NCBI RefSeq assembly: GCF_000564855.1
Contig: NZ_AYXG01000212.1
Span: 1 to 44,045, forward strand
DNA length: 44,045 nt
Direction: 5' to 3'
Source: Actinokineospora spheciospongiae
GTDB taxonomy: Bacteria; Actinomycetota; Actinomycetes; Mycobacteriales; Pseudonocardiaceae
Shown here: piece by piece, positions 4,261 to 27,562 of the stretch
Layout of the letters: each line of letters starts with the position of its first letter
How positions within the stretch are numbered: the first letter of the stretch is position 1
Notes under the pieces: generated by a model
The model's input: only the letters and a program-made list of their open reading frames with translations
The model's database searches: none
Told to the model about the DNA's origin: nothing
Position numbers and translations under genes: made by a program

Positions 4261-5475
4261 TTACGCCCGCAGGCTCGTCGACGCGGCGAAGACCGCCTGC
4301 CAGTCGATCCGGTGGCCGCGCGCGTCCAACCGCGCCAGCGCGGTCAGGAAGGCGGTGGTCTCGTCCGGTTCGGCCTGCAGGGCGGGGACCACCCGGTCCT
4401 GCTCGTCGGCGGGGAGGCAGCGGGCCGCCAGCCTGCTGAGCACGCCGCTGGGGCCGACCTCGACGTACGTGCCGACGCCCCGGGCCTGGAGGGTGTCCAT
4501 GATGGAGGACCAGCGGACCGGCAGGCGGCAGTGCCGGGTCCAGTGGTCGGGGGTCGCGGCGTCGCCGGGTGGGACGAGGTCGCCGGTGGAGTTGCCGACC
4601 AGGTGGATCGCGGCGGGGCGGCCGGGGACCGCGGCGATGGCGGCGGCCAGGGCGGGCATGGCCGGGTCGACGGCGGGGGAGTGGTAGGCGTTGCCGACGC
4701 CGACGCGGCTGGTGCGCACGCCGCGCGCGGCGAAGCGGTCGGAGATGGCGGTGATCTCCTCCAGCGGCCCGGCGATCGCGACCGACGACGTGTCGTGCAC
4801 GGCCGACACCGACGCCGCCGTGCCTGCCAGGGCGGGGGCGACGACGTCCTCCGGGGCCTCGATGGCGATCATCCCGCCGCCGGGCGGCAGCGCGTCGAGC
4901 AGCAACCCCCGGCTGGTGACGACGGCCGCCGCGTCCTCCAGCGACCACACCCCGGCGGCGGTGGCGGCGACGTACTCGCCGAAGGAGTGCCCGGTCACCA
5001 CGTCCGGCCGCAGCCCGGCTGTCGTGAGCAGCTCGAACAGGCCGATCCCCAGGCCCAGCAACGAGGGCTGGGCGAACGCGCAGTCGTCGAGGCCCTCGGC
5101 GGCGCCCGCGACGACCGACCGCAGCGGGGTGGGGAGCATCGGGTCGACCCGCGCGCACACCCGCGCCACCGCCGCGTCGACCTGCGGGAACTCCAGGCCG
5201 AGTCGGGCGCCCATGCCGACGCGCTGGCTGCTCTGCCCGGAGAACAGGAACGCCACGGGACCGGGTTCGGGCAGGGGCGCGCACGCGGCGGCGGCGGCGG
5301 GCGCGGCGGCCAGGTCGTCGGGCCCGTGCGCGAGCAGGACCGTGCGGAACCGGTGCTCGGGGCGGGCGCGCGCGGCGAGGGCTCGCCCCAGGGCGGGCAG
5401 GTCGCCGGACAGCGATTCCGCCTGGGCCACCAGTTCGGCCGACGTGGGTGCGCTGAGCAGCAGCGGGACGCTCAT
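4261..5475 (-). CDS. Discrete malonyl-type acyltransferase (trans-AT)
   Basis: This 404-residue enzyme has the fold and motifs of PKS acyltransferases. AFLFSGQSSQRVGMG lies at about residues 75-89, the nucleophile elbow GHSFGEY has Ser164, and the substrate motif is NAYH at 262-265. Malonyl enzymes usually have HAFH and methylmalonyl enzymes YASH here, so specificity cannot be read with certainty, though it is closer to the malonyl type. The first 70 residues (start ATG 5475) resemble the linker that precedes AT domains, suggesting origin from a modular PKS. It faces away from the PKS operon across a shared control region. The operon PKS has its own AT, so this enzyme may charge a separate carrier or supply an unusual unit. 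It also gives the locus a hint of trans-AT chemistry. Confidence 0.85.
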   Translation of the reverse strand: MSVPLLLSAPTSAELVAQAESLSGDLPALGRALAARARPEHRFRTVLLAHGPDDLAAAPAAAAACAPLPEPGPVAFLFSGQSSQRVGMGARLGLEFPQVDAAVARVCARVDPMLPTPLRSVVAGAAEGLDDCAFAQPSLLGLGIGLFELLTTAGLRPDVVTGHSFGEYVAATAAGVWSLEDAAAVVTSRGLLLDALPPGGGMIAIEAPEDVVAPALAGTAASVSAVHDTSSVAIAGPLEEITAISDRFAARGVRTSRVGVGNAYHSPAVDPAMPALAAAIAAVPGRPAAIHLVGNSTGDLVPPGDAATPDHWTRHCRLPVRWSSIMDTLQARGVGTYVEVGPSGVLSRLAARCLPADEQDRVVPALQAEPDETTAFLTALARLDARGHRIDWQAVFAASTSLRA

Positions 5476-6093
5476 GCGGGGACTCCTTCCCGGGCGCGGC
5501 CGCCCAGCGGGACGAGGGTGCGGGTGGGGGCGCGGCGGAATCGACGCCGATTCCCGGAACGGGTCGGGGGGTACGGGGAATGCGGTGCGGCGGGTTCCGG
5601 CATCGTCCTCACTGCTCGTGGCGCGGGGTGCGGTGGCGTCGGACCAGACTTCAACCTAGCGGTCGGGTGTGATGTTCCGGTAATAGCCCGACATCGATTT
5701 GCCGGACCGCCGTCGTGGTCCATCCGGGCGGGCGGCACCGGCGAGGATGATCTTGTCCGGTCCCGGGTCGAGGACGCGCGCCGGGGCCGGCCCAGGTCGA
5801 TGGGAAGCGCTGTGAGCTGGGAAGTCGGTGGTGAGTGTCTCACCAATCCAGATACTGGGTAGCGTCTGATTTGCCGGATATGTACTATCGACGTTGTCGG
5901 TGTCGGCAGCGTCCACTCGGGAGGTGGGGCGGTTCGGTCGGTGGTGCGCCAGGCTTTCCCTCGACCGCTCGGCTGGTACGGCACCAGCGCCATCCCGTTT
6001 CATTCCCGGCTATTCCCCCATTGTGTCCCCGTGTACCCCGAATGCGCCGGCCGCGTTTCCCCGACGCCCGCGCGGAATCCGGAGGAGTCGACC
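5476..6093. promoter_or_regulatory. Divergent control region of the biosynthetic locus
   Basis: These 618 bases separate the leftward acyltransferase from the rightward ligase-PKS operon and hold no convincing gene. Two exact copies of GATTTGCCGGA lie at 5696-5706 and 5868-5878, with a related inverted TTCCGGTAA at 5675-5683. GTGAG-N3-CTCAC, a small perfect inverted repeat, lies at 5831-5843. Immediately after the second copy comes ATATGTACTATCGAC, the most AT-rich part of the region and a possible -10 area. I infer binding sites for a locus regulator. No regulator gene lies within the cluster itself. Confidence 0.5.
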
Positions 6094-7650
6094 GTGTCCC
6101 CACCGGCCGACCTGCCCGCAGGCGCCCGCGTCGTCCTCGCGCTGCCCAGCGGCGACCGGCTGGCCGAGCTGCTGCTCGGCTGCCTCGACCGCGAGCTGGT
6201 CGCCGTCCCGCTCGACCCGCGCACCCCGCCCTCACGCGTCGCCGAGGTCGTGCGCCGCGTGCGCGCCTCCGCCGTGATCACCCCGGGCGGCGTCGAGACC
6301 ACCGGCCTGCCGCACGAGCACCCCGACGCGGACGGCCTCGCGCTGATCATGTTCACCTCTGGTTCGACGGGTGTTCCCAAGGGCGTGATGCTGCCCAGGG
6401 CCGCGGTGCTGGGCAACGCCGCCAAAACAGCGGCCTTGCACGGTTTCGCGCCCGACCGTCCACACGCGACCTGCCTGCCGCTCTACCACTGCAACGCGCT
6501 GGTCATGTCCCTGGTGGGCACGCACACCACCGGCACGCCGCTGGTCCTGCACCCCGGGTTCGACCCCGCCGCCTACTTCGCCGACCTGCGCGCCAAGGAG
6601 GTGCGCACGGCCTCGATCGTCCCGGCGATGCTGCCCGACCTGCTCGACTCCGCGCCGCCGTGGCCCGAGAGCCTGGACTACCTCATCACCGCCGCCGCCC
6701 CGCTCACCGCCGACCTCGCCCGCCGCTTCCACGCGCGCTACGGGCCGAGGCTGCGCCAGGGCTACGGGCTGACCGAGCTGGTCAACTTCTCCTTCACCAC
6801 ACCGCACCCCGGCCCGGAGCGCTGGGCGGCGGAGTACCTCGACCACCACCCGCCGGTCGGAGCCCCGCTGCCCGGCACCGAGCTGCGGCTGGAGGCAGGC
6901 GAGGTCTGGATCCGCTCCGCGGACCGGATGCGCGGCTACTGGGAGGACCAGGAGGCCACCGCCGCCGCGCTCACCCCGGACGGCTGGCTGCGCACCGGCG
7001 ACCTCGGCGCGCGGCGCGGCGACCTGCTCGTGCTCACCGGCCGCCGCAGCGAGCGCATCGAGCGCGGCGGCGAGAAGCACTACCCGCTGGAGGTGGAGCG
7101 GACCTGGCGCGAGGCGGGGCTGCCCGGCCGGTTCGCCGCCGTCCCGGTGCCGGACGACACCCTCGGCCACGAGATCGGCCTCGTCACCGCCGACACCGAC
7201 GCGGGCACCATCGCCGCCGCCCGCGCCATCGCCGAGAACGGCCCGCTCCGCCCCGCCGCCCTGGCGTTCGGCGCGTTCACCGCAACCGCCACCGGCAAGC
7301 CGCAGCGCACGGCCATGGGCCGGGCGCTGGCGGCGGGCCGGGAGAACCCGAGCCGGTGGAACCGCGCGCTCGACCCCGGCGGGACGGCCACCCTGCGGGC
7401 CGCCGCACAGACGGCCCGCGCGCGCCTGGCCGACGAGGTCGTGCGGCGTCTCAACCACACCGGCCCGGTCCGCGTGGCCGACCCGGCGGACCCGCGCCGC
7501 GCCCCCGGCGAGCTGCTGGTCGTCCCGCACGGCCCGGGCCCCGGCCGCTGGGACCTGGTCGAGGCGCTGCGCGCGGACGCGGACGCGGTCGGGACCAGCG
7601 CCCTGCGCGCGGGCCGCCACGACCTGGGCGGGGTCGTCTGGGCCCGGTGA
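6094..7650 (+). CDS. Acyl-adenylate (AMP-forming) ligase
   Basis: The product is 518 residues and belongs to the ANL superfamily, which activates carboxylic acids as acyl-AMP for transfer to CoA or a carrier. Motif A3 reads LIMFTSGSTGVPKGVML near residues 86-102, A5 reads QGYGLTE, A7 reads WLRTGDLG, and A10 is GKPQRT near residue 405. The GTG start at 6094 follows GGAGGA at 6081-6086; the open frame extends farther upstream but without protein-like pattern. Only about 85 residues precede A3, much fewer than usual, so the N-terminal subdomain is shortened. About 110 residues follow A10, ending in ALRAGRHDLGGVVWAR, and this tail is not a recognisable domain. It heads the PKS operon. It could prime the PKS or activate the free product. 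Confidence 0.85.
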   Translation: MSPPADLPAGARVVLALPSGDRLAELLLGCLDRELVAVPLDPRTPPSRVAEVVRRVRASAVITPGGVETTGLPHEHPDADGLALIMFTSGSTGVPKGVMLPRAAVLGNAAKTAALHGFAPDRPHATCLPLYHCNALVMSLVGTHTTGTPLVLHPGFDPAAYFADLRAKEVRTASIVPAMLPDLLDSAPPWPESLDYLITAAAPLTADLARRFHARYGPRLRQGYGLTELVNFSFTTPHPGPERWAAEYLDHHPPVGAPLPGTELRLEAGEVWIRSADRMRGYWEDQEATAAALTPDGWLRTGDLGARRGDLLVLTGRRSERIERGGEKHYPLEVERTWREAGLPGRFAAVPVPDDTLGHEIGLVTADTDAGTIAAARAIAENGPLRPAALAFGAFTATATGKPQRTAMGRALAAGRENPSRWNRALDPGGTATLRAAAQTARARLADEVVRRLNHTGPVRVADPADPRRAPGELLVVPHGPGPGRWDLVEALRADADAVGTSALRAGRHDLGGVVWAR

Positions 7651-7708
7651 CGGCCCAGCCCCCGCCAGCACCTCCCCGCTCGACCCCGCCGAAGAACGGA
7701 GAGCCACT

Positions 7709-8277
7709 GTGCCGCACGAGACCCGCCCACCCCGCGCTGGCGCCCCCGCGCTGAACATCGTCACCTGGGCGGACGCCGAACTCGACGACGAACGCACCAC
7801 CCTGCACGTCGGCCACGGCCCGCTGCCCTCGGCCATGCACGGCGCGGTCGGCGCGACCGGCCGGGAGCTGGCCACGATCGGCGCGATCGGAGCGGACCTG
7901 ATCCGGCTGCCCGCGGGCAGCGGCTTCCAGCCGCACACCCACCCCGGCCACCACGTGCTGACCGTCGTCGGCGGCATCGGCACGATCACCTACGGCGGCA
8001 GAGTCTACGAGACCAACGCCGGACAGACCTACCTCATCGAAGGCGACGTCCCGCACGCCGTTGGCGCCATCACCGACCACGTCATCCTGGCCGTGGGCTC
8101 CCCGCACATGCCCGTCGACCACGAGAACCGGATGGCCCCGGTGCCCTACGAGGAGGTCATCGCCCCCGATGGCGACCTGACCTGCCTGATCTGCGCGGTC
8201 ACCGCCCTGGCCCCGGTCAAGCTGCACGCCAAGGGCTGCCCGCACTGCCCGTGCGCGACGTGCGTCGGTGTCGCGCC

Positions 8278-8281
<4 letters not shown>
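7709..8281 (+). CDS. Cupin protein with a C-terminal cysteine cluster
   Basis: This 190-residue protein starts at GTG 7709, preceded by GGAGAG. Residues about 60-135 form a single cupin barrel with the metal motif PHTHPGHH (His76, 78, 81, 82) and the second motif EGDVPHAVG. The C-terminal 35 residues contain six cysteines (159, 162, 177, 180, 182, 185) in CLIC and CPHCPCATC, a likely zinc or iron-sulfur site not found in ordinary small cupins. It overlaps the PKS start by four bases (GTGA, 8278-8281), so it is made with the synthase. A role in tailoring or in shaping the polyketide is plausible. Cupins in PKS loci often act as cyclases or oxygenases, but the sequence does not decide. Confidence 0.8.
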
Positions 8282-13217
<4,936 letters not shown>

Positions 13218-13221
<4 letters not shown>

Positions 13222-14597
13222 GCAGTCAGACCGCGACCACCGAGGAGCTCTTCGCCGACGACCCGCTGGCCTGGGCGGGCGGGGACTACCGCGCGCTGCA
13301 CCGGCTCGGGCAGACCGAGCTGGCCGACCTGCAGCTTGCGGCCCTGCGGCGGCGGTTCGCCGACCTGCGCGGCGGGCTGGCGGTGCTCGACGCCATGGTG
13401 GCCGACACCGGCGTCGAGGCGATCGAGACCCTCGGCGACGCGATCCCGCTGCTGTTCTCACCGGAGGTCTACAAGTCCTACCCGGCCTCGCTGCTGCGCC
13501 GCAAGCGGTTCGACGTGCTCACCGGCTGGCTCAGCCGACTGACCACAGTGGACCTCTCCGGCGCGCGGGCGTCGGCGGCGACCTCCATCGACGACTGGCT
13601 CGCCGACCTGGACGCCAGCACCGACCTGCGGGTCCAGCACTCGTCGGTCACCTCGGGCACCATGTCGTTCGTCCCGCACACCCACAGCGAGGTCGACGCC
13701 ATGTTCTCCGTCGTCGGTGCCAGGGTGCGCGGCGGCGGCGACCCGGTGCCGGTGGTGTGGCCGATGATCCGCGGGGGCCGCAGCGGCATCATGCGCTGCG
13801 CCGACGCCCTCGCCGAGCACGTGGCGGGCGGTGAGGACAACGTGCACGCCATGCACCCGGGACGGATGAGCGCCGACGTCATGCTGCTCGCCGGGCAGAT
13901 CGCCGCCGCCCGCGCCCGCGGCGAGGACGTCGACGCCGACCCGGGCCTGCTGGCCCGCCGCGAGGAGTTCGAGGTGCTGCGCCGCGAGTCCGAGGCGGCC
14001 ATGCCCGGGTTCGTCGAGCGCCTCGCCGACACCCTGCGCGGGCGGCGCGTGTACCTGATGAACACCTGGAACACGCTGCACCAGGTGGCGACGGCCGGGC
14101 TCGACCGCGGCCTCGACGGCCTGTTCGCCGCCGACTCGCTCATCGAGCCGGGCGGGGGCACCAAGGGCGCGCACATGCCCGACGACTGGCAGGACCGGGT
14201 GCTGCGGTTCACCGGGGCCGACCGCTTGCAGCACATCTACGCGATGACCGAGACCACCGCGCTGCACCCGATGTGCGGCGAGGGCCGCTACCACCTGGAG
14301 CCGTGGACGGTCGCGTTCGTCCTCGACCCGGCCACCGACGAGCCGCTGCCGCGCACCGGCACCCAGACCGGGCGGGGCGCGTTCTTCGACCTGCTCGCCC
14401 GCACCCACTGGGGCGGCTTCCGGTCCGAGGACCGGATCACGGTCGCCTACGAGCCCTGCGCGTGCGGGCGGTCCACCCCGCAGGTGCACGACGGCATCCG
14501 GCGGCTCAAGGACGTCGGCGACGTCGACAAGATCAACTGCGCGGCGACCGACTCCGCCCACCGCGCCGCCCTGGACCACCTGAGCGGGGGGTCCTGA
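13218..14597 (+). CDS. LuxE/PaaK-like acyl-adenylating enzyme
   Basis: A 459-residue member of the ANL superfamily on the LuxE (acyl-protein synthetase)/phenylacetate-CoA-ligase branch. The phosphate-binding loop reads SSVTSGTMSF at about residues 138-147, and the adenine-binding segment HIYAMTETTALHP is near 340. A CxCG motif (PCACGRS) near 415 is typical of PaaK-type C-termini. GTG 13218 overlaps the PKS stop (GTGA), and the gene shares one base with the LuxC-like gene that follows. In luminous bacteria LuxE activates a fatty acid as acyl-AMP and passes it to LuxC. Here the pair most likely processes the polyketide. LuxE-type enzymes pass the acyl chain through a cysteine near the C-terminus; I could not assign that residue with confidence. 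Confidence 0.8.
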
Positions 14598-16033
14598 TGG
14601 CCCTGGCGGTCCCCGCCGTCGTCCGCGGCGAGCTGGTCGAGGGCCCGCTGGTCGAGTTCGGCGGTCGCGGCGAGACCGGCTTCGCCGTCGCCGACCCGGC
14701 CGCGGTCGTGCCACGCCTGGGGAGGCGGAACCTGGCGCTGAGCCGGGAACTCGCCGCGCTCGACCTCGACGAGGTCCTCGACTACCTGGCCGAGCTGGGG
14801 GCCAGGCTCGTCGACAACGAGTACCTGGACGAGGCGGTCGAGCGGTCGGCCGGGCTCGCCGACACCCCGCCGGGGCTGGTCCGCTCGAACCACCGGCTGC
14901 TGCCCGGCCTGTTCGCCCGCGAGGCCACCGAGGAGGTCGTCGCCGCGATCGGTCGTGACGTGCTGACCGGCTGGCCCGAGCGGCGGATGGCGGACGGCCG
15001 CGTCGGCGCGGTGCACGCGTTCGGCGTGCGGTCCGCGCACGTCATCGCGGGCAACAGCCCGCTGATCGCGGCCATGACCCTGGTCCGCACGGCCGTCACG
15101 CGCGGCGAGGCGGTTGTCAAGACCCCGTCCAACGACCCGCTGACGATGGTCGCGCTGGTCCGCACGATGATCGACATGGCCCCGGGCCACCCACTGACCC
15201 GCGCGGTGTCGGTGGCCTACTGGAAGGGCGGCGACGAGGCGCTGGAACGGCGGCTCTACCACCCGGCCGCGTTCGACAAGATCGTGGCCTGGGGCGGGAT
15301 GGCCTCGGTCAAGCACGTCGTGCGCTACCTGGAGCCGGGCCTGGAGCTGGTCACCTTCGACCCCAAGCGCAGCGCCACCATCCTCGGCCCGGAGGCGTTC
15401 GAGCCTGCCGCGCTCGACGACGTCGCCCGCAGGCTGGCACTGGACGTGGGCGCGTTCAACCAGGTCGGCTGCGTGAACGCCCGGGTCGTCTACGCCGTGT
15501 GCGACACCGGGGCCGCCGAAGACCTCGCCCGCCGCGTCTACGCGGAACTGCGAGAGCTGCCGCCCACCGTGTCCACCGCGGCGGGGCGGATCGACACCGA
15601 GCTGCGGGCCTGCCTGCGCGCGCTGCGCGCGGGCGGCTTCCACACCGTCGTCGGCGGCGAGGCCGACGAGGGCGCGGTGATCGTCTCGCACCTCGACGAG
15701 CCGGTCGGCTTCGCCGGGTCGCTGGCCGGGCGGGTGGCCAACATCGTCCCCGTCGAGACCGCCGAGGACGCCGCCCGGCACCTCGACGCCGCCACCCAGA
15801 CGGTCGGGGTGTACCCGGCAGCCCTGCGCCACCGGCTGCGCGAGGTGCTCCCGCTGGTCGGGGTGCAGCGCACGGTCGAGCTGGGCTGCGCGGTCAGCGT
15901 GCACCCGGCGCTGCCGCAGGACGGGTTCGAGCCCGCCCGCCGCCTGGTCCGGTGGGTCACCGACGAGCACCTGCCCGCCGGGTCCGACCCGCTCGACATC
16001 GTGTTCCCGCCGCACCGCGAGGAGGACCCGTGA
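14597..16033 (+). CDS. LuxC-like acyl reductase (aldehyde-forming)
   Basis: A 478-residue protein of the LuxC branch of the aldehyde-dehydrogenase superfamily. It reduces an enzyme-bound or CoA-bound acyl group to an aldehyde with NADPH. The LuxC-like region with VIAGNSPLIAAMTLVRT, VKTPSNDPLTMVAL and the nucleotide-binding WGGMASVKH runs from about residue 150 to 240. The catalytic cysteine is Cys292 in FNQVGCVNARV. The length is the usual one for LuxC. TGATG at 14595-14599 couples its translation to the LuxE-like gene. With no luciferase genes nearby, the aldehyde is a biosynthetic intermediate or end product rather than a light substrate. The acyl donor is inferred to be the PKS product. 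Confidence 0.88.
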   Translation: MALAVPAVVRGELVEGPLVEFGGRGETGFAVADPAAVVPRLGRRNLALSRELAALDLDEVLDYLAELGARLVDNEYLDEAVERSAGLADTPPGLVRSNHRLLPGLFAREATEEVVAAIGRDVLTGWPERRMADGRVGAVHAFGVRSAHVIAGNSPLIAAMTLVRTAVTRGEAVVKTPSNDPLTMVALVRTMIDMAPGHPLTRAVSVAYWKGGDEALERRLYHPAAFDKIVAWGGMASVKHVVRYLEPGLELVTFDPKRSATILGPEAFEPAALDDVARRLALDVGAFNQVGCVNARVVYAVCDTGAAEDLARRVYAELRELPPTVSTAAGRIDTELRACLRALRAGGFHTVVGGEADEGAVIVSHLDEPVGFAGSLAGRVANIVPVETAEDAARHLDAATQTVGVYPAALRHRLREVLPLVGVQRTVELGCAVSVHPALPQDGFEPARRLVRWVTDEHLPAGSDPLDIVFPPHREEDP

Positions 16034-17034
16034 TCTGCGTCCGCGCCGTCTCGACCTGGCTGCCCGACACCCGCGAGACCCTGGCCGAGGCCCTGGCCGA
16101 CGGCCGGATGACCGAGCAGGACCTCGAGCGGTCCGGCTACTCGTCCATCCCCGTCGCCGGACCCGACCTGCCCGGTCCCGTCCTCGCCGCCAACGCGGCC
16201 CGAGCCGCGCTGGCCGAGTCCGGTGTGGACCCCGCGCGGGTCGGGCTGCTGCTGCACGCCTGGACCGAGTACCAGGGCCACGACCTGTGGTCGCCCCCGC
16301 ACTACATCGCCGACCAGGTCGGCGCTGGCGACGCGCTCCCCGTCGGCGTCCGGCAGTTGTCCAACGGCGGGGCCGCGGCGACCGAGCTCGCCGCGAGCTG
16401 GCTGCACGCCCACCAGGACGGCTTGGCCGTGGTGACCACCGGCGACCGCTTCTGCCTGCCCGGCTTCGACCGCTGGCGCTCCGACCGCGGCCTGGTGCAC
16501 GCCGACGCGGGCACCGCGATGGTCCTGGCCGCCGCGCCCGGGCCCGCGGACGCGCTGCGCCTGCTCGGGATCGCCAGCGCCTCGGCCCCGCGGCTGGAGG
16601 GCATGCACCGCGGCGACGACCCGTTCAGCACCGGCCGCTACGACCAGGGCGCCCCGATCGACCTGGCCCGCACCAAGAAGGCGTTCTTCGCCGCCCACAC
16701 CCGCGAGGCGTTCACCGACACCGCCACCGGCAAGGCCAAGCGGGTCGTCACCGAGGCCGCCGAGCGCGCGGGCGTCGCCCTCGACGACCTGCGCCACCTG
16801 CTGCTGCCCCGGATCGGGCGGCTGACCTACGAGCTGTACCGGCCGGTGTTCGGCGAGATCACCACCGCCGAGGTCCTCGACCGCGGCGAGCACACCGGGC
16901 ACCTGGGCGCGGGCGACCTGCTCGCCAACCTCGCCGACCTGACCACCCTGCTCGGCCCGGGGGAGAAGGCCGCGGTCTTCAACGGCGGCGGCGGGTACAC
17001 CTGGACGGCTGTGGTCGTGGAGCGACCCGCGTGA
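16030..17034 (+). CDS. KAS III-like enzyme with altered active site
   Basis: This protein is 334 residues with the thiolase fold order of ketoacyl-ACP synthase III (two halves, C-terminal GHLGAGDLLANLADL and FNGGGGYTW). At the position of the catalytic cysteine the sequence reads RQLSNGGAAATELA, placing Ser111 where related enzymes have Cys (compare QQCNGG). The usual HQAN histidine is replaced by LPRIG, and the GN(T/S) asparagine by GH. Ser-for-Cys is known in DpsC, and KAS III-like acyltransferases (ChlB3, CerJ, PtmR) move aromatic acyl groups off iterative PKSs. I therefore infer acyl transfer rather than chain extension. GTG 16030 overlaps the LuxC-like stop, and the gene overlaps the P450 by four bases. 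Confidence 0.85.
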   Translation: MICVRAVSTWLPDTRETLAEALADGRMTEQDLERSGYSSIPVAGPDLPGPVLAANAARAALAESGVDPARVGLLLHAWTEYQGHDLWSPPHYIADQVGAGDALPVGVRQLSNGGAAATELAASWLHAHQDGLAVVTTGDRFCLPGFDRWRSDRGLVHADAGTAMVLAAAPGPADALRLLGIASASAPRLEGMHRGDDPFSTGRYDQGAPIDLARTKKAFFAAHTREAFTDTATGKAKRVVTEAAERAGVALDDLRHLLLPRIGRLTYELYRPVFGEITTAEVLDRGEHTGHLGAGDLLANLADLTTLLGPGEKAAVFNGGGGYTWTAVVVERPA

Positions 17035-18203
17035 GCGGCGCCGTCGACCGGCTCGTCGCGCGCTTCGACCACCACGACCCCGAGTTCACCCCCGAGGTGG
17101 CCGTGGCCGTGCACCGGCGGCTGCGCGAGGTCGGCGAACCCGTGCACTCCGCGGCGCACGGCGGCGTGTGGGTCCTGGCCCGCTACCGGCACGTGTTCGA
17201 CGCGCTCAAGGACCACGGGACGTTCTCGTCGGCGCAGGGCGTGTTCTTCCCACGCGGCGCCGACCAGCCCAGGTTCGCGCCGCTGGAGTACGACCCGCCC
17301 GAGCACACCGCGTTCCGCTCGCTGATGCGCCCGGCGCTGGCCGCGGCGGCGGTGCGCGCGGTGGAGCCGCGCATCGACCGGCTCGCGGCCGAGGTCGTGC
17401 GGCCGTTGGTGGCGCGCGGGTCGGCGGACCTGGTGGCGGAGCTGACGACCACGCTGCCGCTGGCGGTGCTGGCCACCACCATCGGGTTCTCCGACGCCGC
17501 CCGCAGCGAGATCCTGGAGCTGACCCGCACCACGTGGTCGAGGATGGCCACCGGCGGGCAGTTCTGGCCGCAGTTCGCCGCCCTGCTCGACGCCGAGATC
17601 GCCCGCGCCCGCCGCGACCACGACGGCACCTACCTGGCCGAGCTGGTCCGCACCGAGGTCGACGGCGCGCCGGTCACCGACGAGCAGCTGCGGGTCATGC
17701 TCGTCGCGTTCGCCATCGCCGGGCACGAGACCACGATGAACACCACCGGGCACCTGCTCTGGCGCCTGGCCCAGGACCCGGACCTGGCCGCCCGGCTCGC
17801 GCGGGACCCGGGCGCCCGCCCGGCCGCCGTCGACGAGTCGCTGCGGCTGGACGCGCCCGTCGACCACGGCAGCCGGGTCACCACGCGCGAGGTCGAGGTG
17901 GGGCGCACGACCATCCCGGCCGGGTCGCGGGTGCTCTTGGCCGTGGGCGCGGCCAACCGCGACCCCGAGCGGTTCGACGACCCGGAGGCGTTCCGGCTCG
18001 ACCGGGGCCCGGCCCGGCACCTGTCGCTGGGCCAGGGCATCCACTTCTGCCTGGGCGCCCAGCTCGGCCGCAGGCAGATCGTGGCCGTGCTCGACGAGCT
18101 GGCCGCCGCGCCGCCGATGACCCTCGACGGGCCCGTGCGCAGGCACTACGCCAACGGTCGCCACCTCAACCTGGCCGCGCTGCCGGTGCGGTGGGGCGCG
18201 TGA
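17031..18203 (+). CDS. Cytochrome P450
   Basis: A 390-residue soluble bacterial P450 (class I, needing ferredoxin and reductase encoded elsewhere). The I-helix oxygen-binding motif AGHETT is near residues 234-239, ExxR appears as ESLR near 267-270, and the heme loop reads LGQGIHFCLGAQLG with Cys340 as the iron ligand. All key residues are present. The enzyme probably hydroxylates or otherwise oxidises the polyketide product. GTG 17031 overlaps the preceding stop and the gene overlaps the transporter start by four bases, so it belongs to the PKS operon. The substrate is inferred only from location. Confidence 0.95.
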   Translation: MSGAVDRLVARFDHHDPEFTPEVAVAVHRRLREVGEPVHSAAHGGVWVLARYRHVFDALKDHGTFSSAQGVFFPRGADQPRFAPLEYDPPEHTAFRSLMRPALAAAAVRAVEPRIDRLAAEVVRPLVARGSADLVAELTTTLPLAVLATTIGFSDAARSEILELTRTTWSRMATGGQFWPQFAALLDAEIARARRDHDGTYLAELVRTEVDGAPVTDEQLRVMLVAFAIAGHETTMNTTGHLLWRLAQDPDLAARLARDPGARPAAVDESLRLDAPVDHGSRVTTREVEVGRTTIPAGSRVLLAVGAANRDPERFDDPEAFRLDRGPARHLSLGQGIHFCLGAQLGRRQIVAVLDELAAAPPMTLDGPVRRHYANGRHLNLAALPVRWGA

Positions 18204-19417
18204 GGAACGGCCTGGCCTGGCCGGTCGCGCTGGGCGCGGCCGGGCTGGTGTTCGACGGGTACGACCTGGTCGTCTACGGCGCGCTGGTGCCACTGTTCCT
18301 GCGCTCGCCAGGCGAGATCGGGGCGCTGACCCCCGCGGCGGCCGGTGCGCTGGGCAGCTACGCGCTCATCGGGGTGCTGGTCGGTGCGCTCGCCGCGGGC
18401 GCGGTGTCGGACCGGTGGGGGCGGCGGCCGGTGCTGCTGGGCGGGTACGCGTGGTTCTCCGTGGGCATGGGCGCGACCGCGCTGACCTCGTCGACGCAGG
18501 CGTTCGGGGCTTGGCGGCTGGTGACCGGCATCGGGATCGGGGTCGTCGTGGCGACGACCGGGGTGCTGGTGTCCGAGCTGGCGCCGCCGGGGCGCGGGCA
18601 GCTCTGCACGACGGTCGCCTACTGCGGCATCCCGCTCGGCAGCGTCCTCGGCACGGTCGCCGCACTGTCCCTGTTGGACACGATCGGTTGGCGGGGGCTG
18701 TTCTGGATCGGGGCGCTGCCGCTGGTGGTGTTGCTGCCGCTGGCGTGGTGGCGGCTGCCGGAGTCGCCCGCGTGGCGCGGGCGGGAGCGGGGGCGGTCCG
18801 GGTTCGCCGGGTTGTTCACCGGTCCGACGCTGCTGCCCGCGGTGCTGCTCGGCGTGGTGAGCGGGATCGGGCTGCTGCTGGTGTTCGCGCTGAGCACGTG
18901 GCTGCCGGAGCTGATGGGGCGGTCCGGGTTCGGCTCGCGCGGGTCGCTGGTGCTGCTGCTGGTGCTCAACGGCGGCGCGGTCGTCGGGGCGCTGCTGGCC
19001 TCGCCGCTGGCGGAGCGGTTCGGGCCCCGGCGGGTGGTGGCGGGCTGCTTCGGGCTCGGCGGCGCGGGCATGCTCCTCATCGGCTCGCAGCCCCCCGCCG
19101 CCGTGGTGCCGGTGCTGGTCGCGGTCGTGGGGCTGGGCACGACCGGGACGCAGATCCTGGTGATCGGGCTGGCCACCGCCACGTTCCCCACCGCCGTGCG
19201 CGGGGCGGGCGTGGCCTGGTGCACCGGCTTCGGGCGGCTCGGCGGGATCGCCGGGCCGCTGGTCGTCGGGCTGCTCGTGGCGGCCGGGTCGGGCGTCGAG
19301 TCGCTGTTCACCGCGCTGGGGGTGGTCGCCGCGCTCGGCGCGGGGCTGGCCCTGCTGGTCAGGTCCGGTCGAGCTGCTCCTCGAACGCCGTCTCCCGGGC
19401 CAGCGCGGCACACGTGA
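18200..19417 (+). CDS. AAHS-type MFS transporter
   Basis: A 405-residue inner-membrane protein with about 12 hydrophobic segments. The N-terminus VFDGYDLVVYG is the signature of the aromatic acid:H+ symporter group of the major facilitator superfamily, and the loop 2-3 motif GAVSDRWGRRPVLLGG is present. AAHS members carry benzoate-like acids. As the last gene of the PKS operon, it is most easily explained as exporter or re-importer of an aromatic product or precursor. GTG 18200 overlaps the P450 stop. Its last 59 bases overlap the convergent MHS gene. The final residues (GRAAPRTPSPGPARHT) look like a low-complexity cytoplasmic tail. Confidence 0.88.
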   Translation: MRNGLAWPVALGAAGLVFDGYDLVVYGALVPLFLRSPGEIGALTPAAAGALGSYALIGVLVGALAAGAVSDRWGRRPVLLGGYAWFSVGMGATALTSSTQAFGAWRLVTGIGIGVVVATTGVLVSELAPPGRGQLCTTVAYCGIPLGSVLGTVAALSLLDTIGWRGLFWIGALPLVVLLPLAWWRLPESPAWRGRERGRSGFAGLFTGPTLLPAVLLGVVSGIGLLLVFALSTWLPELMGRSGFGSRGSLVLLLVLNGGAVVGALLASPLAERFGPRRVVAGCFGLGGAGMLLIGSQPPAAVVPVLVAVVGLGTTGTQILVIGLATATFPTAVRGAGVAWCTGFGRLGGIAGPLVVGLLVAAGSGVESLFTALGVVAALGAGLALLVRSGRAAPRTPSPGPARHT

Positions 19418-20657
19418 TCGTCACCGCCGCCAGACCCGCGTAGTACAGCAGCACCCACCACGGCCGCCCGTCGCCCGCCAGCACCAGCGCCGCGGCGATC
19501 AGCGGCGTGAACCCGCCCGCGAGCACCGACCCGATCTGGTAGCCCAGCGACACCCCGCTGTAGCGCAGGTGCAGCGGGAACAGCTCGGAGAACCAGGCGG
19601 GCTGCCCGGCGGCCATCGCGTCGAAGAACACGCTCGTGGCCAGCACCACCGCCAGCACGATGAGCACGGTGGACCCGGTGTCGACGGCGAGGAAGAACAA
19701 CGCCAGCGCGGCGACGGCGCCCACGGCTCCGAACAGGTAGGGCCGCTTGCGCCCGAACCTGTCGGTGAGCCCGCCCCACACCAGGGTCGTGCCGATCGAC
19801 ACGGCTGAGGACACCACCACCGCGATCAGGCCTGCATCGCTGTCCTCGCCGAGGTTGGCCGAGATGTAGCTGAGGCCGTAGGTGGTGAGCATGACGTAGA
19901 GGCCGATCTGCGACAGCCGCAGGCCCGTCGTCAGCAGGACCGGGACCGGCGCCGCGCGCAGCACCTCCAGGACCGGCAGGCGGGCGACCCCGCCCTGGTC
20001 GCGCAACCGCTGGAACTCCGGAGCGTCCCGCAGCCGCAACCGCACCGCCAGGCCGACGCCGACCAGGACGACGCTGAGCAGGAAGGGGAGCCGCCACGCC
20101 CACGCCAGGAACGCCTCGGGCCCGGCTGCCGTCCGGGTGATCCAGAACACGCCCGTCGCCAGCAGCATGCCCGCCGGGGAGCCGATCTGGGTGAAGCCGC
20201 CGAACCAGCCGCGCCTGCCCGGCGGCGCGTGCTCGACGGTCAGGATCGCCGCCCCGCCCCACTCCGCGCCGACCGCGAGCCCCTGCAGCGTCCGCAGGAC
20301 GACCAGCAGCGCAGGCGCGAGCATGCCGATCGTGGCGTAGGTGGGCAGCAGGCCGATCAGCGTGCTCGCGCCGCCCATCAGCAGCAGCGCGCCGACCAGG
20401 ACGGCCTTGCGCCCGATCCGGTCGCCGAGGTGCCCGGCGACCACCGCGCCGATCGGCCGCGCGCCGAACCCGGCCGCGAACGTCGCGAACGCCGCCAGCG
20501 TCCCGGTCGCCGGGTCGACCGAGGAGAAGAACACCTTGTTGAACACCAGCGCTGAGGCCGTGGCGTAGAGGTAGAAGTCGTACCACTCGATCGTCGTCCC
20601 GATCGCGCTCGCGAACGCCACCCGCCTGGGCGTTCGCACCACGGTGCTCCCCGACAC
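19359..20657 (-). CDS. MHS-family MFS transporter
   Basis: A 432-residue membrane protein with the metabolite:H+ symporter signature IEWYDFYLYATAS at about residues 23-35 and HLGDRIGRKAVLVG in loop 2-3, as in ProP, KgtP and ShiA. It imports a small organic acid or osmolyte; the substrate cannot be told. Start is GTG 20657, with GGGAGGG a short distance upstream. A strikingly AT-rich patch (about 20684-20706) immediately upstream is a likely promoter. It converges with the PKS operon and overlaps it by 59 bases, so strong expression of one could interfere with the other. Whether it belongs to the biosynthetic locus is uncertain. Confidence 0.88.
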   Translation of the reverse strand: MSGSTVVRTPRRVAFASAIGTTIEWYDFYLYATASALVFNKVFFSSVDPATGTLAAFATFAAGFGARPIGAVVAGHLGDRIGRKAVLVGALLLMGGASTLIGLLPTYATIGMLAPALLVVLRTLQGLAVGAEWGGAAILTVEHAPPGRRGWFGGFTQIGSPAGMLLATGVFWITRTAAGPEAFLAWAWRLPFLLSVVLVGVGLAVRLRLRDAPEFQRLRDQGGVARLPVLEVLRAAPVPVLLTTGLRLSQIGLYVMLTTYGLSYISANLGEDSDAGLIAVVVSSAVSIGTTLVWGGLTDRFGRKRPYLFGAVGAVAALALFFLAVDTGSTVLIVLAVVLATSVFFDAMAAGQPAWFSELFPLHLRYSGVSLGYQIGSVLAGGFTPLIAAALVLAGDGRPWWVLLYYAGLAAVTITCAALARETAFEEQLDRT

Positions 20658-20848
20658 GCCGAGTCCCTCCCTGAACTGGGCAAAAGTAACAAAACGAATC
20701 TATTGAACCACGGTGGGCCAGTCATCCCACCGGGTCGGACCACCCGCTGCCGACCGCCACTCCGGTAGTCGCGGTGGCGATTGTCCTTTCCACCGTTCGC
20801 GTCCACTTCTGACCCGCCGACTCGGTCGACCCCCAGCAGACTGGGCGC

Positions 20849-21022
20849 ATGGGCGTTCGCGGCAAGCACCGAGACGTGGCCACGACCGGCGCCGGGGTCG
20901 CCGTCGTCGTGGGCCTGTTGGCCGCGCTCACCCCGGCGCAAGAGGTCCGCCGCTTCTCGCTGGGAATCGCGCTGGCGGTCATGATGGCCGTCGGGATCAC
21001 GAACCTGCCGAACCGCGGCTGA
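20849..21022 (+). CDS. Small two-helix membrane protein
   Basis: A 57-residue open frame with ATG 20849 and TGA at 21020. After a basic start (MGVRGKHRD) come two hydrophobic segments, TGAGVAVVVGLLAAL and LGIALAVMMAVGI, separated by TPAQEVRRFS, ending NLPNRG. No ribosome site is strong, but the composition is clearly membrane-protein-like. The family is unknown. It precedes another small membrane gene that is broken by a stop codon, and lies upstream of the cobalamin riboswitch but outside its control. Confidence 0.55.
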   Translation: MGVRGKHRDVATTGAGVAVVVGLLAALTPAQEVRRFSLGIALAVMMAVGITNLPNRG

Positions 21023-21034
21023 GCAGTCCTGCGG

Positions 21035-21400
21035 ATGGGGCCACCGCCCCCGCGCCGCGACGCTGGGTATGCGGAAAGCACAGCCGTTCACCACTCCGCC
21101 CCGACGCCGTCCACCCGGCCGACCGCCACCGGGTTCCTGGTCGGCGCCGCACCGCAGGTGGCCCTGCTGATCGCCCACGCGGGGGGCGCGCTCGCGGACG
21201 CGTACTTCGCCGCCCACACCGCCGTCTCGCTGGCGACCGCGCTCACCGGCTTCGGCTGAGGCCGGTTCCTGCCCGAGCCCAGCCGGTCGGCCGCCCGCGG
21301 CGCCGGAATCGCGGGGCTGGTGGGCCTCGCGTTCAGCCTCACGCTCGTGGTCCTGGTCGTCTTCGTGCTCCTCGCGCTGTCGACCCAGGTCCCTGGCTGA
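21035..21400 (+). pseudogene. Small membrane protein interrupted by an in-frame TGA
   Basis: One frame stays protein-like through an internal TGA at 21257-21259. Before it are GFLVGAAPQVALLIAHAGGA and FAAHTAVSLATALTGFG. After it, in the same frame, come RFLPEPSRSAARGAG and the long hydrophobic segment GLVGLAFSLTLVVLVVFVLL, ending at TGA 21398-21400. The frame is entered somewhere after 21035; a first methionine with a good ribosome site is not clear. I infer a three-helix membrane protein inactivated by one nonsense change. Readthrough cannot be excluded but has no support here. The family is not recognised. Confidence 0.5.
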
Positions 21401-21429
21401 ACCGAGCTCTTGTCTTCACCGACCGTGAA

Positions 21430-21575
21430 CCGGGGCGACGGGGTGCGGGGCGGGCGCGGGGGCGTGCTTGTGCTGTCGCCGACAGCCGAGGGAATCCGGT
21501 GGGAAACCGGAGCGGTCGCGCCACTGTGACCGGTCGTCGAAGACGACCGGGAGCCAGACCTCTCGCTGTCGCTGT
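21430..21575 (+). promoter_or_regulatory. Cobalamin (B12) riboswitch
   Basis: The conserved core is clear: GAGGGAATCCGGTGGGAAAC at about 21488-21507, the B12 box GCCACTGTGACCGG at 21520-21533, and GGGAGCCAGACCT at 21550-21562. Together these are the class-I adenosylcobalamin aptamer signature. A C-rich downstream stretch (ACCCGGGCCGCGCCAGCCCC) precedes the ribosome site GAGGAG at about 21598, so control of translation initiation is plausible. It sits directly in front of a FecCD-type permease, an expected B12-regulated target. Bases of the aptamer core look intact although the genes behind it are broken. Confidence 0.93.
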
Positions 21576-21609
21576 GCACCCGGGCCGCGCCAGCCCCGAG
21601 GAGACGCTG

Positions 21610-22650
21610 ATGGACAACGACCGCGGTTCCCGCTGCCCAGCGCCTCCCCGGTGAGGTTGCGCGTCGGCGCCACCGTCCTCGTCCTGGTGGCGCTGCTCGG
21701 CCTGAGCGTCGTGGTGTTCACCGCCTTCGGCGCGCAGCAGCTCCCCCTCGGCTCGGTGGCCCGGGTGCTCCGGGCCCGCACCTGCGGCTGCGCCACCACC
21801 GCCCTGGTCTCGGACACGATCGTCCGGCAGTTCCGCGCCCCCGGGTGCTGCTGGCCGTCCTGGTGGCCGCCGGGCTGGCGTTGGCGTGCAGACCCTGGTG
21901 CTCAACCTGCTCGCCGACCCGTACCTGCTCGGCGTGTCCTCCGGCGCCGGGGTGGGCGCCTCGGCGGTGCTCACCATGGGGCTGTTCGCCTCCGCGGGCG
22001 GCTACGCCCTGACCGCGGGCGCGCTCGCCGGGGCGCTGACGGCGGCGCTGGTCGTGTTCGGCTTGGCCACCGCTCAGGGCGGGCTGACCCCGCTGCGGCT
22101 GGTGCTGACCGGCACCGTGCTCGGCTCGGCGTTCTCCGCGCTGGCCGGCTTCCTCGTCTTCCGCAGCCCCAACCCGGCCGCGGCTCTGGCTGCTGGGCAG
22201 CCTCGCGGGCGCGGGGTGGCAGCAGTTGGTCCTCCCAGCCGCCATCGTGGCGGTGGTCGGGGTGCTGATGCTCCTGGGCAGCCGGTGGCTCGACGCGCTG
22301 CTGATCGGGCCGGAGACCGCCTCGGCGGTCGCGTCCCCGTGCGGCAGGTGCGAATCACCCTGTTCGTGGCGCTGGGCGTCCTGGTCGGCGTGCTGGTCGC
22401 GGTCTCCGGCGGCATCGGGTTCGTCGGGTTGGTCGTCCCGCACGCCGCCCGGCTGCTCGTCGGGCCGCGGCACCGCGCGCTGCTGCCGGTCGCGGCCGTG
22501 CTCGGGGCGGTGTTCCTGGTGTGGGTCGACGTGGTCATCCGCATCGCTGTGTGTCCCACGGAGATCCCGCTGAGCGTGGTCTTCGGGCTCATCGGCGCCC
22601 CGGCCTTCCTCGCGCTGCTGGGCAGGCACCGCTACCGGTTCGGCTCGTGA
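21610..22650 (+). pseudogene. BtuC-like B12/siderophore ABC permease, multiply frameshifted
   Basis: Three frames must be combined to recover a FecCD/BtuC permease. ATG 21610 has a good ribosome site but its frame stops after 14 codons. Frame 2 gives SASPVRLRVGATVLVLVALL. Then RVLLAVLVAAGLALA is in a third frame. ADPYLLGVSSGAGVGAS begins another run, followed after a shift near 22190 by LLGSLAGAGWQQLVLP. After another near 22325, RITLFVALGVLVGVLVAVSG continues through GFVGLVVPHAARLLVG to TGA 22648-22650. At least four shifts, plus a small deletion near 21890, make a working protein very unlikely. The family is certain from the ADPYLLGVSSGAG and GLVVPHAAR motifs. Confidence 0.9.
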
Positions 22651-22920
22651 GCGGCATCGAGGCGGTGGCGCTGACCTGCGCCATCGGCCGTCGGACCATG
22701 CTCACCGAGGTGGCCCTCGACCTCGCGGCCGGGTAGGTCGTCGGCGTCGTCGGACCCAACGGCAGCGGCAAGTCGACGCTGCTGCGCGCGCTGGCCGGGA
22801 TCGCCAAGCCGCGGGCCGGGCGGGTGCTGGTGGCGGGGAGGACCTGCACCGGCTGCCCGCCCGCGCGGGCGGTCCCGCAGTTCCGGGTAGGGGGCAGACC
22901 CTGCTGGTCAACGGTGACAG
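22647..22920 (+). pseudogene. BtuD/FecE-like ABC ATPase, stop codon and truncation
   Basis: GTG 22647 overlaps the permease stop, the usual btuCD arrangement. The frame reads TCAIGRRTMLTEVALDLAAG, then TAG at about 22735-22737, then continues VVGVVGPNGSGKSTLLRALA with an intact Walker A. After about 22850 (GRVLVAGRT) the ATPase pattern ends: no Q-loop, signature or Walker B follows. The gene therefore has a nonsense codon and has lost its 3' two thirds. It was part of a cobalamin-riboswitch-controlled B12 uptake operon that has decayed. Confidence 0.88.
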
Positions 22921-23234
22921 GCCTGGTGATTGAGGTCATCCCGCCATGTCCACCGGGTTCGAGGTGGCGCGCGGCTCGGGTGCAGCTCGACGGCTTGGTG
23001 CCATCGGCAGCGATCTGGTGGAGTGTGCTCGCCTTGCTCCGGCTGCGGCGGTGCTCGATGCGCTCGAGCACCGCCGACTGGCACGCAGTGCTCATCACCG
23101 CCCACCGCACCTCCCTCGGTCAGACGAACCCACACGTGGCCTGCAGAATCGACCTCCCGCGAAAACTCAAGACCTATGCCGGGCGGGAAACGCCAGCGGG
23201 ATAGCCCACACGCGCCTCGTGCACCAGTTCACCT
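22921..23234. other. No recognisable gene
   Basis: Several short frames cross this stretch on both strands, none with a family I recognise. On the minus strand, SAVLERIEHRRSRSKASTLH (about 23085-23025) is the most protein-like piece and might be a worn remnant. The stretch joins the truncated ATPase to the AbrB-like locus and is probably debris of a deletion. Confidence 0.3.
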
Positions 23235-24218: not shown

Positions 24219-24234
24219 TGGTCTAGAATAGACC
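24219..24234 (-). terminator. Weak hairpin at the stop of the 604-aa gene
   Basis: GGTCTA-GAA-TAGACC (24220-24234) is a perfect 6-bp inverted repeat overlapping the stop codon of the leftward gene. It lacks a strong T run. It could aid termination or be a regulatory site. Confidence 0.3.
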
Positions 24235-26037: not shown

Positions 26038-26122
26038 GGACATCACCTCAGCGTTACACTATACGGGACGGGTCCGTATGGACACATCGCAGGTTATGGA
26101 TTATTGCGACATTCGATTGAAA

Positions 26123-26428: not shown

Positions 26429-26451
26429 GAGGTGTCCTGTCGGACTGAGGG

Positions 26452-27320: not shown

Positions 27321-27562
27321 CGTTTGGTCCGGGTGAGTTGTTGAGCGAGGAGTTCGTGGCAGGTGGTGAGAACGCAGGGTTCGAGGGCTTCGAGCCGTTC
27401 GACTTCTGCGGGGTTCAGGCCTCCGACTTCGAGCGCATATCGGATTTGGTCTGCCGTGGTGAGGACGGCTTGGAGTTGTGCGATGAGAGTTGTTGGCACG
27501 ATGGTTGGCGGTTGCGGTATGTGTAGCCGCGCGAGTGGAGTGATGATCTTTTTAGGTCTCAT
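27317..27562 (-). CDS. Unknown 81-aa helical protein
   Basis: ATG 27562 overlaps the XRE stop by one base (TGATG) and the gene overlaps its follower by four. The first 25 residues are basic and Pro-rich. Residues 25-78 form a long predicted helix (LIAQLQAVLTTADQIRYALE, then ECLEAL-like repeats of Leu/Glu). A short coiled-coil or dimerisation role is possible. Family unknown. Confidence 0.65.
   Translation of the reverse strand: MRPKKIITPLARLHIPQPPTIVPTTLIAQLQAVLTTADQIRYALEVGGLNPAEVERLEALEPCVLTTCHELLAQQLTRTKR

What the first reader, a model, noticed from the sequence alone, without database searches (positions are those of the whole stretch)
4261..19417. Iterative PKS locus wired to a LuxE/LuxC-type reductive release pair
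A KS-AT-DH-KR-ACP synthase without thioesterase is followed, with start/stop overlaps, by LuxE-like and LuxC-like genes, a KAS III-like enzyme, a P450 and an aromatic-acid-type transporter. LuxC/LuxE normally make fatty aldehyde for bioluminescence, and no luciferase subunits are here. The simplest reading is a polyketide aldehyde pathway: the PKS makes a short aromatic acid, LuxE activates it, LuxC reduces it, and the remaining enzymes tailor or transfer it. I know of no described pathway with exactly this gene set.
Basis: partly seen in the sequence, partly recalled or inferred. Interest (0 to 1): 0.82.

Follow-up and report, generated by a model that had tools for sequence, protein, structure and literature searches.

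The report
Aromatic polyketide cluster with Lux-type reductases
An actinobacterium related to Actinokineospora carries a compact gene set in which a small iterative polyketide enzyme is coupled to relatives of the two enzymes that make aldehyde for bacterial light, so it probably makes an aldehyde (perhaps aromatic) instead of an acid; the same set recurs in other actinobacteria, including on plasmids of ant symbionts, and its product is unknown.

Summary
The gene set is real. On the + strand, cupin, KS-AT-DH-KR-ACP synthase, LuxE-like, LuxC-like, KAS III-like, P450 and MFS genes overlap by 1-4 bases at all six junctions; an AMP ligase lies upstream and a stand-alone acyltransferase diverges. 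The order is conserved in 5 genomes (type A: window, two named Actinokineospora, two ant-associated Pseudonocardia plasmids). A form without KAS III (type B: PKS-LuxE-LuxC-P450) occurs at 4 loci, one on another contig of this genome. The PKS groups with iterative PKSs, some KAS III-linked, apart from modular ones, which fits a 6-methylsalicylate-type synthase. LuxC is a clear PF05893 reductase. 'LuxE' is a PaaK-like adenylating enzyme, distantly LuxE-like, with an invariant C-terminal cysteine. The KAS III-like protein has a serine nucleophile position with the His-Asp pair of the acyltransferases ChlB3/CerJ. Most likely: the PKS makes a short, probably aromatic chain, LuxE/LuxC reduce it to an aldehyde, P450 and accessory genes tailor it. 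Substrate, direction and product are inferred. LuxE-LuxC pairs also occur in many loci without a PKS. No description of this set appeared in the paper searches made. Verdict: new variant of a known kind.

The parts
4261..5475 (-). stand-alone type I-like acyltransferase (AT), divergent from the main run
   Evidence: PF00698 146 bits; active-site GHSFG in 4 of 4 proteins compared (window, A. pegani, A. bangkokensis, Pseudonocardia); orthologues at both other Actinokineospora clusters and both Pseudonocardia clusters (46-48%)
6094..7650 (+). AMP-dependent acyl ligase (ANL); start GTG 6094 chosen for the GGAGGAG upstream (6031 also possible)
   Evidence: PF00501 162 bits; nearest solved structure feruloyl-CoA synthetase 8wev E 1.3e-29; start site; orthologues in the 4 other type A genomes
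7709..8281 (+). small cupin protein
   Evidence: PF07883 41 bits; present in A. pegani and both Pseudonocardia, no hit in A. bangkokensis
8278..13221 (+). iterative type I PKS, KS-AT-DH-KR-ACP, no TE
   Evidence: Pfam; KS Cys/His/His, AT GHSVG, DH His [12 protein letters not shown] and ACP motifs present; KS tree
13218..14597 (+). LuxE-like/PaaK-like adenylating enzyme
   Evidence: model with PaaK-type ligase matches; family profile match to LuxE of the LuxC-LuxE structure 7xc6, E 1.8e-4; Cys441 in 94 of 94 family members aligned
14597..16033 (+). LuxC-family acyl reductase
   Evidence: PF05893 E 2.9e-40; family profile against LuxC 7xc6_A E 4.1e-52 over nearly full length; active-site Cys (292 from ATG 14597) in 94 of 94
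16030..17034 (+). KAS III-like acyltransferase (or condensing enzyme) with Ser in place of the catalytic Cys
   Evidence: DpsC 4xs7 E 5.8e-55, CerJ 1.5e-39, ChlB3 1.1e-35; Ser111, His291 and Asp296 in 5 of 5 type A proteins, Arg261 where DpsC has its other catalytic His
17031..18203 (+). cytochrome P450
   Evidence: PF00067; haem Cys motif GIHFCLG, AGHET, ESLR; at least 55% identical in all 8 other PKS-linked loci
18200..19417 (+). MFS transporter resembling aromatic acid/H+ symporters
   Evidence: TIGR00895 212.1 bits, below its 418.55 cut-off; present in all 5 type A genomes
19359..20657 (-). second MFS transporter (metabolite/H+ symporter, shikimate-transporter-like); doubtful member
   Evidence: TIGR00883 385 bits against 443; kept at the same edge in A. 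pegani and A. bangkokensis; no match in the Pseudonocardia stretches searched

Best explanation
The locus is a small biosynthetic cluster for a polyketide-derived aldehyde (or the alcohol or other compound made from it). The PKS, a 6-methylsalicylate-synthase-like iterative enzyme, builds a short, probably aromatic acyl chain on its own ACP (inferred from relatives). Having no thioesterase, it gives the chain up either through its DH-like (thioester hydrolase-like) domain or, in this type A cluster, by transfer to the serine of the KAS III-like protein. The LuxE-like protein then adenylates the acid and holds it, probably on Cys441; LuxC takes it over on Cys292 and reduces it to the aldehyde. 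The P450 oxidises the product, the MFS proteins move acid or product; the AT, ligase and cupin supply or tailor a type A-specific part. Shown: genes, domains, catalytic residues, overlaps, conservation. Inferred: substrate, direction, order of steps, product.
For: Six of six junctions overlap. PKS-LuxE-LuxC-P450 is a conserved core at 9 loci: window, A. pegani, A. bangkokensis, two Pseudonocardia plasmids, own contig C130, S. niger, a Frankia contig (PKS cut by the contig end), G640. The 7 of these PKSs in the tree form one group, support 94/91, inside 16 iterative-type rows set apart from 10 modular rows, support 98/97; of the other 9 rows 4 lie next to a KAS III-like gene, as in ChlB1/ChlB3, where 6-methylsalicylate is not released for want of a thioesterase and is handed on by a KAS III-like enzyme (PMC9573744, introduction read). 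LuxC. LuxE: PaaK-type fold matches, best E 1.4e-13, LuxE 7xc6 E 1.8e-4, invariant Cys441 beside a low-confidence, perhaps flexible, stretch 435-439. His291-Asp296 of the KAS III-like protein match the His-Asp pair of the acyltransferases ChlB3/CerJ. DH-like domain as thioester hydrolase in 6-MSA synthases: PMC4797705 (passages).
Against: No characterised bacterial 6-MSA-type PKS sequence could be put in the tree, and 5 of the 9 other iterative rows showed no KAS III-like gene in the 14 kb read. KR and the DH His/Asp are present, so a reduced, non-aromatic chain is possible. LuxE is below the Pfam/NCBIfam LuxE cut-offs, its best fold matches have TM-scores near 0.5, and LuxE of 7xc6 is not among the 50 fold matches listed. 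The same LuxE-LuxC family serves loci without PKS whose substrates are unknown and may be oxidised rather than reduced. The ligase at 6094-7650 could be the one that activates the acid. Type B loci lack KAS III, so it is not needed for release in general.
Confidence: 0.58

Rival explanations
1. The PKS makes a reduced, non-aromatic (polyene or hydroxy) chain and LuxE/LuxC turn it into an unsaturated aldehyde, closer to the fatty aldehyde role of Lux.
For: KR with Ser/Tyr/Asn and DH His and Asp are intact in the full-length type A and B PKSs read; Lux enzymes are known for fatty acyl chains (established knowledge).
Against: Grouping with iterative PKSs of which some are KAS III-linked; the DH-like domain departs from the usual motifs (MGFPW and LLDAALS in the window where I recall YGP and DxxxQ/H as usual) and resembles that of the KAS III-linked PKSs; transporter resemblance to aromatic acid symporters.
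Confidence: 0.17
2. LuxE/LuxC do not act on the PKS product but on another acid or aldehyde (for example the acid activated by the neighbouring ligase), making a partner that the KAS III-like enzyme joins to the polyketide; or LuxC oxidises an aldehyde, as it may do in catabolic loci.
For: The LuxE-LuxC family is mostly found without PKS (76 of 80 loci), in three loci read by eye beside ORFs that look like BVMO, alcohol dehydrogenase or short-chain dehydrogenase (my reading of ORF starts); type A has its own ligase, AT and KAS III-like enzyme.
Against: In type B loci only PKS, LuxE, LuxC and P450 are shared, leaving the PKS product as the obvious substrate; LuxE lies directly behind the PKS with overlap.
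Confidence: 0.15
3. The KAS III-like protein with the AT and ligase primes the PKS with a non-acetate starter, as DpsC primes the doxorubicin synthase, and release is by LuxE/LuxC alone. (Compatible with the aldehyde reading; it differs in the KAS III role.)
For: DpsC is the nearest solved structure, E 5.8e-55, and its Ser and its His297 align; AT and ligase were found with the KAS III in type A loci and not by homology in type B loci (the Frankia contig is only 6.3 kb).
Against: DpsC's His266, one of the two His said to stabilise enolisation (PMC9573744, passage), aligns with Arg261 in 5 of 5 type A proteins (numbering by a shift of three from the chain), while the His-Asp pair of the acyltransferases ChlB3 and CerJ is kept. 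I lowered this rival from a first estimate of 0.35 for that reason.
Confidence: 0.22

Closest known systems
ChlB1/ChlB3 of chlorothricin (6-methylsalicylate synthase plus KAS III-like acyltransferase)
   Same: Iterative PKS without TE working with a KAS III-like enzyme; His-Asp pair of the KAS III kept here (PMC9573744, introduction and passages)
   Different: Here LuxE and LuxC stand between PKS and KAS III; the KAS III has Ser for Cys; no macrolide to acylate in the cluster
LuxC-LuxE fatty acid reductase of luminous bacteria (structure 7xc6)
   Same: Adenylating enzyme plus LuxC-family reductase with conserved active-site Cys
   Different: No luxA/luxB/luxD found in the cluster; LuxE here only distantly related (E 1.8e-4 by profile); order LuxE-LuxC; coupled to a PKS
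EhpF/EhpG of D-alanylgriseoluteic acid (phenazine) biosynthesis
   Same: AMP-binding protein plus aldehyde dehydrogenase-type protein encoded side by side in a phenazine operon (table passages of PMC11278526; EhpF fold match, PDB 3hgv, E 2.9e-9). That they reduce an aromatic acid is recalled; the EhpF paper was not held
   Different: Substrate is a shikimate-derived phenazine, no PKS
DpsC (with AT DpsD) of daunorubicin/doxorubicin
   Same: KAS III-like fold with Ser nucleophile position, E 5.8e-55; that an AT accompanies it there is recalled
   Different: DpsC primes a type II PKS (recalled); its His266 is Arg here

Membership tests
6-MSA-type bacterial iterative PKS (ChlB1-like) | KS-AT-DH/TH-KR-ACP on one chain of about 1650-1750 aa, no TE | tested here: met
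   (length norm recalled)
6-MSA-type bacterial iterative PKS (ChlB1-like) | groups with KAS III-linked iterative PKSs apart from modular PKSs | tested here: met
   16 rows (4 of them KAS III-linked others, 5 without a KAS III seen) against 10 modular, 98/97; inner order of the 16 partly open
6-MSA-type bacterial iterative PKS (ChlB1-like) | sequence clade shared with characterised ChlB1, NcsB, AviM etc. | not testable with these tools
   no such sequence reached; none seen among the 60 PDB chains listed (79 matched)
6-MSA-type bacterial iterative PKS (ChlB1-like) | makes 6-methylsalicylate or a related aryl acid | not testable with these tools
   needs expression
LuxC (PF05893) | Pfam score above gathering | tested here: met
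   138.8 against 21 bits
LuxC (PF05893) | NCBI equivalog long-chain-fatty-acyl-CoA reductase LuxC | tested here: not met
   126.9 against 750 bits: family member, not the bioluminescence equivalog
LuxC (PF05893) | active-site Cys aligned with LuxC of 7xc6 | tested here: met
   (that this Cys is the active one is recalled)
LuxE (PF04443) | curated LuxE models recognise the protein | tested here: not met
   window protein: no LuxE hit at E up to 10 (Pfam; AMP-binding 0.0082 only) or 1 (NCBIfam); 2 of 12 family members hit LuxE models weakly
LuxE (PF04443) | adenylating (ANL/PaaK-like) fold | tested here: met
   pLDDT 89.2; PaaK matches E 1.4e-13, TM-score about 0.5
LuxE (PF04443) | acyl-accepting Cys near the C terminus (recalled) | tested here: inconclusive
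   Cys441 in 94 of 94 at about the right place, but the PDB alignment ends before it
lux bioluminescence operon | luciferase subunits in the cluster | tested here: not met
   none among the cluster genes; the luciferase-like gene at 41083-42150 is an F420 oxidoreductase by NCBIfam with no hit in 11 locus files covering 6 of the clusters
DpsC/ChlB3/CerJ KAS III-like enzymes | sequence similarity | tested here: met
   the three best-matching molecules are these
DpsC/ChlB3/CerJ KAS III-like enzymes | catalytic residues of DpsC (Ser-His-His) | tested here: not met
   Ser and His297 kept, His266 is Arg in 5 of 5 type A
DpsC/ChlB3/CerJ KAS III-like enzymes | catalytic residues of ChlB3/CerJ (Cys-His-Asp) | tested here: not met
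   His and Asp kept in 8 of 8 aligned proteins, Cys is Ser in 5 of 5 type A and in G010

The most novel reading that the evidence does not exclude
A discrete Lux-type acyl-protein relay is a distinct chain-release system for thioesterase-less iterative PKSs: the serine KAS III-like enzyme plays the part of LuxD (taking the aryl chain from the ACP), LuxE carries it on a C-terminal cysteine and LuxC reduces it, so that a 6-MSA-type synthase ends in an aryl aldehyde. The cassette has spread over several actinobacterial families and onto plasmids of ant symbionts.
Probability: 0.28. Interest if true: 0.75.

Novelty: new variant of a known kind. Interest (0 to 1): 0.55.

Why it matters
If true, it adds a reductive off-loading route to iterative PKSs that uses separate, portable enzymes instead of a fused reductase domain or a carboxylic acid reductase, and it gives a small (four-gene in type B) set that can be expressed and tested directly. 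It would also give the large, unexplained LuxE-LuxC family found outside luminous bacteria a first substrate class, and point to an unknown product of fungus-growing-ant symbionts.

Tried and rejected
Bioluminescence: rejected, no luciferase subunit in the set; the luciferase-like gene at 41083-42150 scores as an F420 oxidoreductase (402.5 against 335 bits) and has no hit in 11 locus files that cover 6 of the clusters.

Large minus-strand ORFs (8146-13461 and six others of 10 proteins given) tested in Pfam: no hits; taken as shadows of the + strand genes. Neighbours: the genes left of 4261 (methyltransferase 1922-2848, DUF6461-like 133-774) gave no hit at the A. pegani or A. bangkokensis clusters, so are not counted in. 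Right of 20657, pieces of an ABC transporter also follow the cluster in A. pegani, but not in A. bangkokensis; not counted in.

P450 as a glycosyltransferase activator (TIGR04515, 129 against 343 bits): rejected, haem Cys present. Part of the selvamicin cluster in Pseudonocardia: rejected for lack of modular PKS genes in the 49 kb of annotation read (that gene table is incomplete by its own description); both strains are listed as selvamicin producers (PMC7763482, passages).

[quoted passage not shown] Paper searches for a described PKS-LuxE-LuxC set gave nothing relevant (listings; all 10 searches spent). AT specificity motif: no HAFH/YASH-type match by pattern, no conclusion drawn.

LuxC tree: the 9 PKS-linked LuxC fall in two groups (2 changes), against one group for LuxE (support 93), both with quick search only and long-branch warnings; a single origin of the PKS link is therefore likely, not shown. 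My first reading that the KAS III-like protein keeps all three DpsC residues was wrong and was mended.
Full report
Place. The window is a whole contig (C211, 44045 bases) of a 7.5 Mb genome. Its nearest named relatives at the cluster are Actinokineospora pegani and A. bangkokensis, which equate to G007 and G002, listed as the same genus; so the genome is an Actinokineospora by inference.

Anatomy. On the + strand lie an AMP-dependent ligase (about 6094-7650), a cupin (7709-8281), the PKS (8278-13221), a LuxE-like gene (13218-14597), a LuxC-family gene (14597-16033), a KAS III-like gene (16030-17034), a P450 (17031-18203) and an MFS transporter (18200-19417). From cupin to MFS all six junctions overlap: GTGA five times, TGATG once. 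An acyltransferase gene runs the other way at 4261-5475.

The PKS. Pfam gives KS, AT, DH, KR and ACP and no TE. The catalytic residues checked are present in the window, its three compared orthologues and three type B enzymes; the Frankia copy is cut by its contig. In 61 genomes searched the best full-length matches other than the orthologues and the own C130 copy are G010, G022 and G027; each lies directly beside a KAS III-like gene, and so does the G050 copy. Five further iterative-type PKSs showed none in the 14 kb read. A KS tree of 26 rows separates 16 iterative-type PKSs from 10 modular ones (98/97); the type A and B rows together (7) are one group (94/91). Partnership with a KAS III-like enzyme is the arrangement of ChlB1/ChlB3, where the 6-methylsalicyl chain stays on the TE-less synthase until ChlB3 moves it (PMC9573744, introduction). 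In 6-MSA synthases the 'DH' region has been proposed as a thioester hydrolase (PMC4797705, passages). A short aryl chain is thus the best guess, not a result.

LuxC and LuxE. LuxC scores 138.8 bits in PF05893, and its family profile aligns along nearly its whole length with LuxC of the structure 7xc6 (E 4.1e-52); the cysteine aligned there is kept in 94 of 94 aligned members. LuxE has no LuxE hit in curated models for the window protein itself, but a 62-member family profile finds LuxE of 7xc6 at E 1.8e-4 and PaaK-type ligases at similar values. An AlphaFold model (mean pLDDT 89.2) matches PaaK-type adenylating enzymes (best E 1.4e-13, TM-score about 0.5; LuxE of 7xc6 is not among the 50 rows shown). 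Cys353, Cys414 and Cys441 are present in 94 of 94; Cys441, 18 residues from the end, is the candidate for LuxE's acyl-carrying cysteine (that LuxE uses a C-terminal cysteine is recalled).

The pair is not rare. A scan of the genome collection with the LuxC family found 312 relatives, of which 80 were kept. In 73 of 80 LuxE is immediately upstream, in 2 immediately downstream, in 4 elsewhere, in 1 not in the held DNA; 4 of 80 have the PKS. Many are in Pseudomonas, Burkholderiales, sphingomonads and mycobacteria, some in Asgard archaea by record title. LuxE relatives at E <= 1e-40 occur in 7 of 297 genomes of the same family (query: window LuxE) and 22 of 394 of the class (query: S. niger LuxE). 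So the unusual thing is the PKS link, not the pair.

The PKS link is a conserved cassette. Type A (PKS-LuxE-LuxC-KAS III-P450-MFS, with ligase and AT): window, A. pegani (93% PKS identity), A. bangkokensis (71%; no cupin hit), and Pseudonocardia sp. HH130629-09 and HH130630-07 from Apterostigma ants, on plasmid records. The annotated plasmid stretch of HH130629-09 shows MFS, P450, KAS III ('hypothetical'), 'acyl-CoA reductase', LuxE ('hypothetical'), PKS, cupin and ligase on one strand with MFS, AT and oxidoreductase divergent, with transposase and toxin-antitoxin genes on both sides. Type B (PKS-LuxE-LuxC-P450): contig C130 of this same genome, Streptomyces niger, a Frankia contig and G640. 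The P450 is at least 55% identical to the window's in all eight other loci, so it belongs to the core; a KAS III hit appears only in type A.

KAS III-like protein. Nearest solved structures are DpsC (5.8e-55), CerJ and ChlB3. All five type A proteins have serine in RQLSNGG, as DpsC has; G010 also has it, G022 and G027 have cysteine. PMC9573744 describes DpsC as Ser-His-His (His266, His297) and ChlB3 as Cys-His-Asp (passages). In type A, His297 and the Asp five residues on are kept, but His266 is Arg (5 of 5). So it matches neither set fully: a serine enzyme with the His-Asp pair of the acyltransferases. That leans towards acyl transfer rather than condensation, without proving it.

Mechanism offered. 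PKS builds the chain; release by the thioester-hydrolase-like domain or onto the KAS III serine; adenylation and thioester on LuxE; reduction by LuxC; P450 and others tailor; MFS moves. Shown by sequence: genes, domains, catalytic residues, overlaps and conservation. Everything chemical is inference. Against it: KR and DH residues allow a reduced chain, LuxE is below family cut-offs, the pair serves other loci, and a second ligase is present.

Known or new. LuxC-LuxE, MSAS-like PKSs, DpsC/ChlB3-like enzymes and adenylating-enzyme/aldehyde dehydrogenase pairs in antibiotic clusters (EhpF/EhpG) are each known. Their combination did not appear in the ten paper searches made (listings seen, with passages of seven papers and one introduction read), and no cluster database could be searched. 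I rate it a new variant of a known kind.

Noticed in passing
L003 8806-17769 (G000:C130, same genome): A second PKS-LuxE-LuxC-P450 set in the same genome, 48-58% identical by tblastn, without a KAS III hit.
   Followed up: yes
L026-L105 in general (for example L035, L058, L092, L045): A widespread LuxE-LuxC pair without PKS in genera such as Pseudomonas, Sphingobium and Mycobacterium and in Asgard archaea; function unknown, possibly oxidative in catabolic loci.
   Followed up: partly
24223-34848: Possible integrated element: large serine recombinase 33029-34783 overlapping the end of tRNA-Leu(gag) 34764-34848, with a 607-aa ORF in about 50% GC DNA at 24223-26046 without family match and an NsdA-family regulator at 28113-29495.
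   Followed up: partly
20713-23204: FecCD-type permease and ABC ATPase pieces in short frames beside the cluster; A. pegani has a longer permease frame (415 codons) there, so the window copy may be decayed.
   Followed up: no
30580-32757: 725-aa protein with a weak match to a MADS defence component (mad8, E 9.5e-7).
   Followed up: no
41083-42150: LLM-class F420-dependent oxidoreductase of the luciferase-like family; not part of the cluster.
   Followed up: yes
L156 15678-35254 (NZ_CP011869.1): The Pseudonocardia copy sits on a plasmid between insertion sequences, with VapC and Fic/Phd toxin-antitoxin genes near, which suggests horizontal spread of the cassette.
   Followed up: partly
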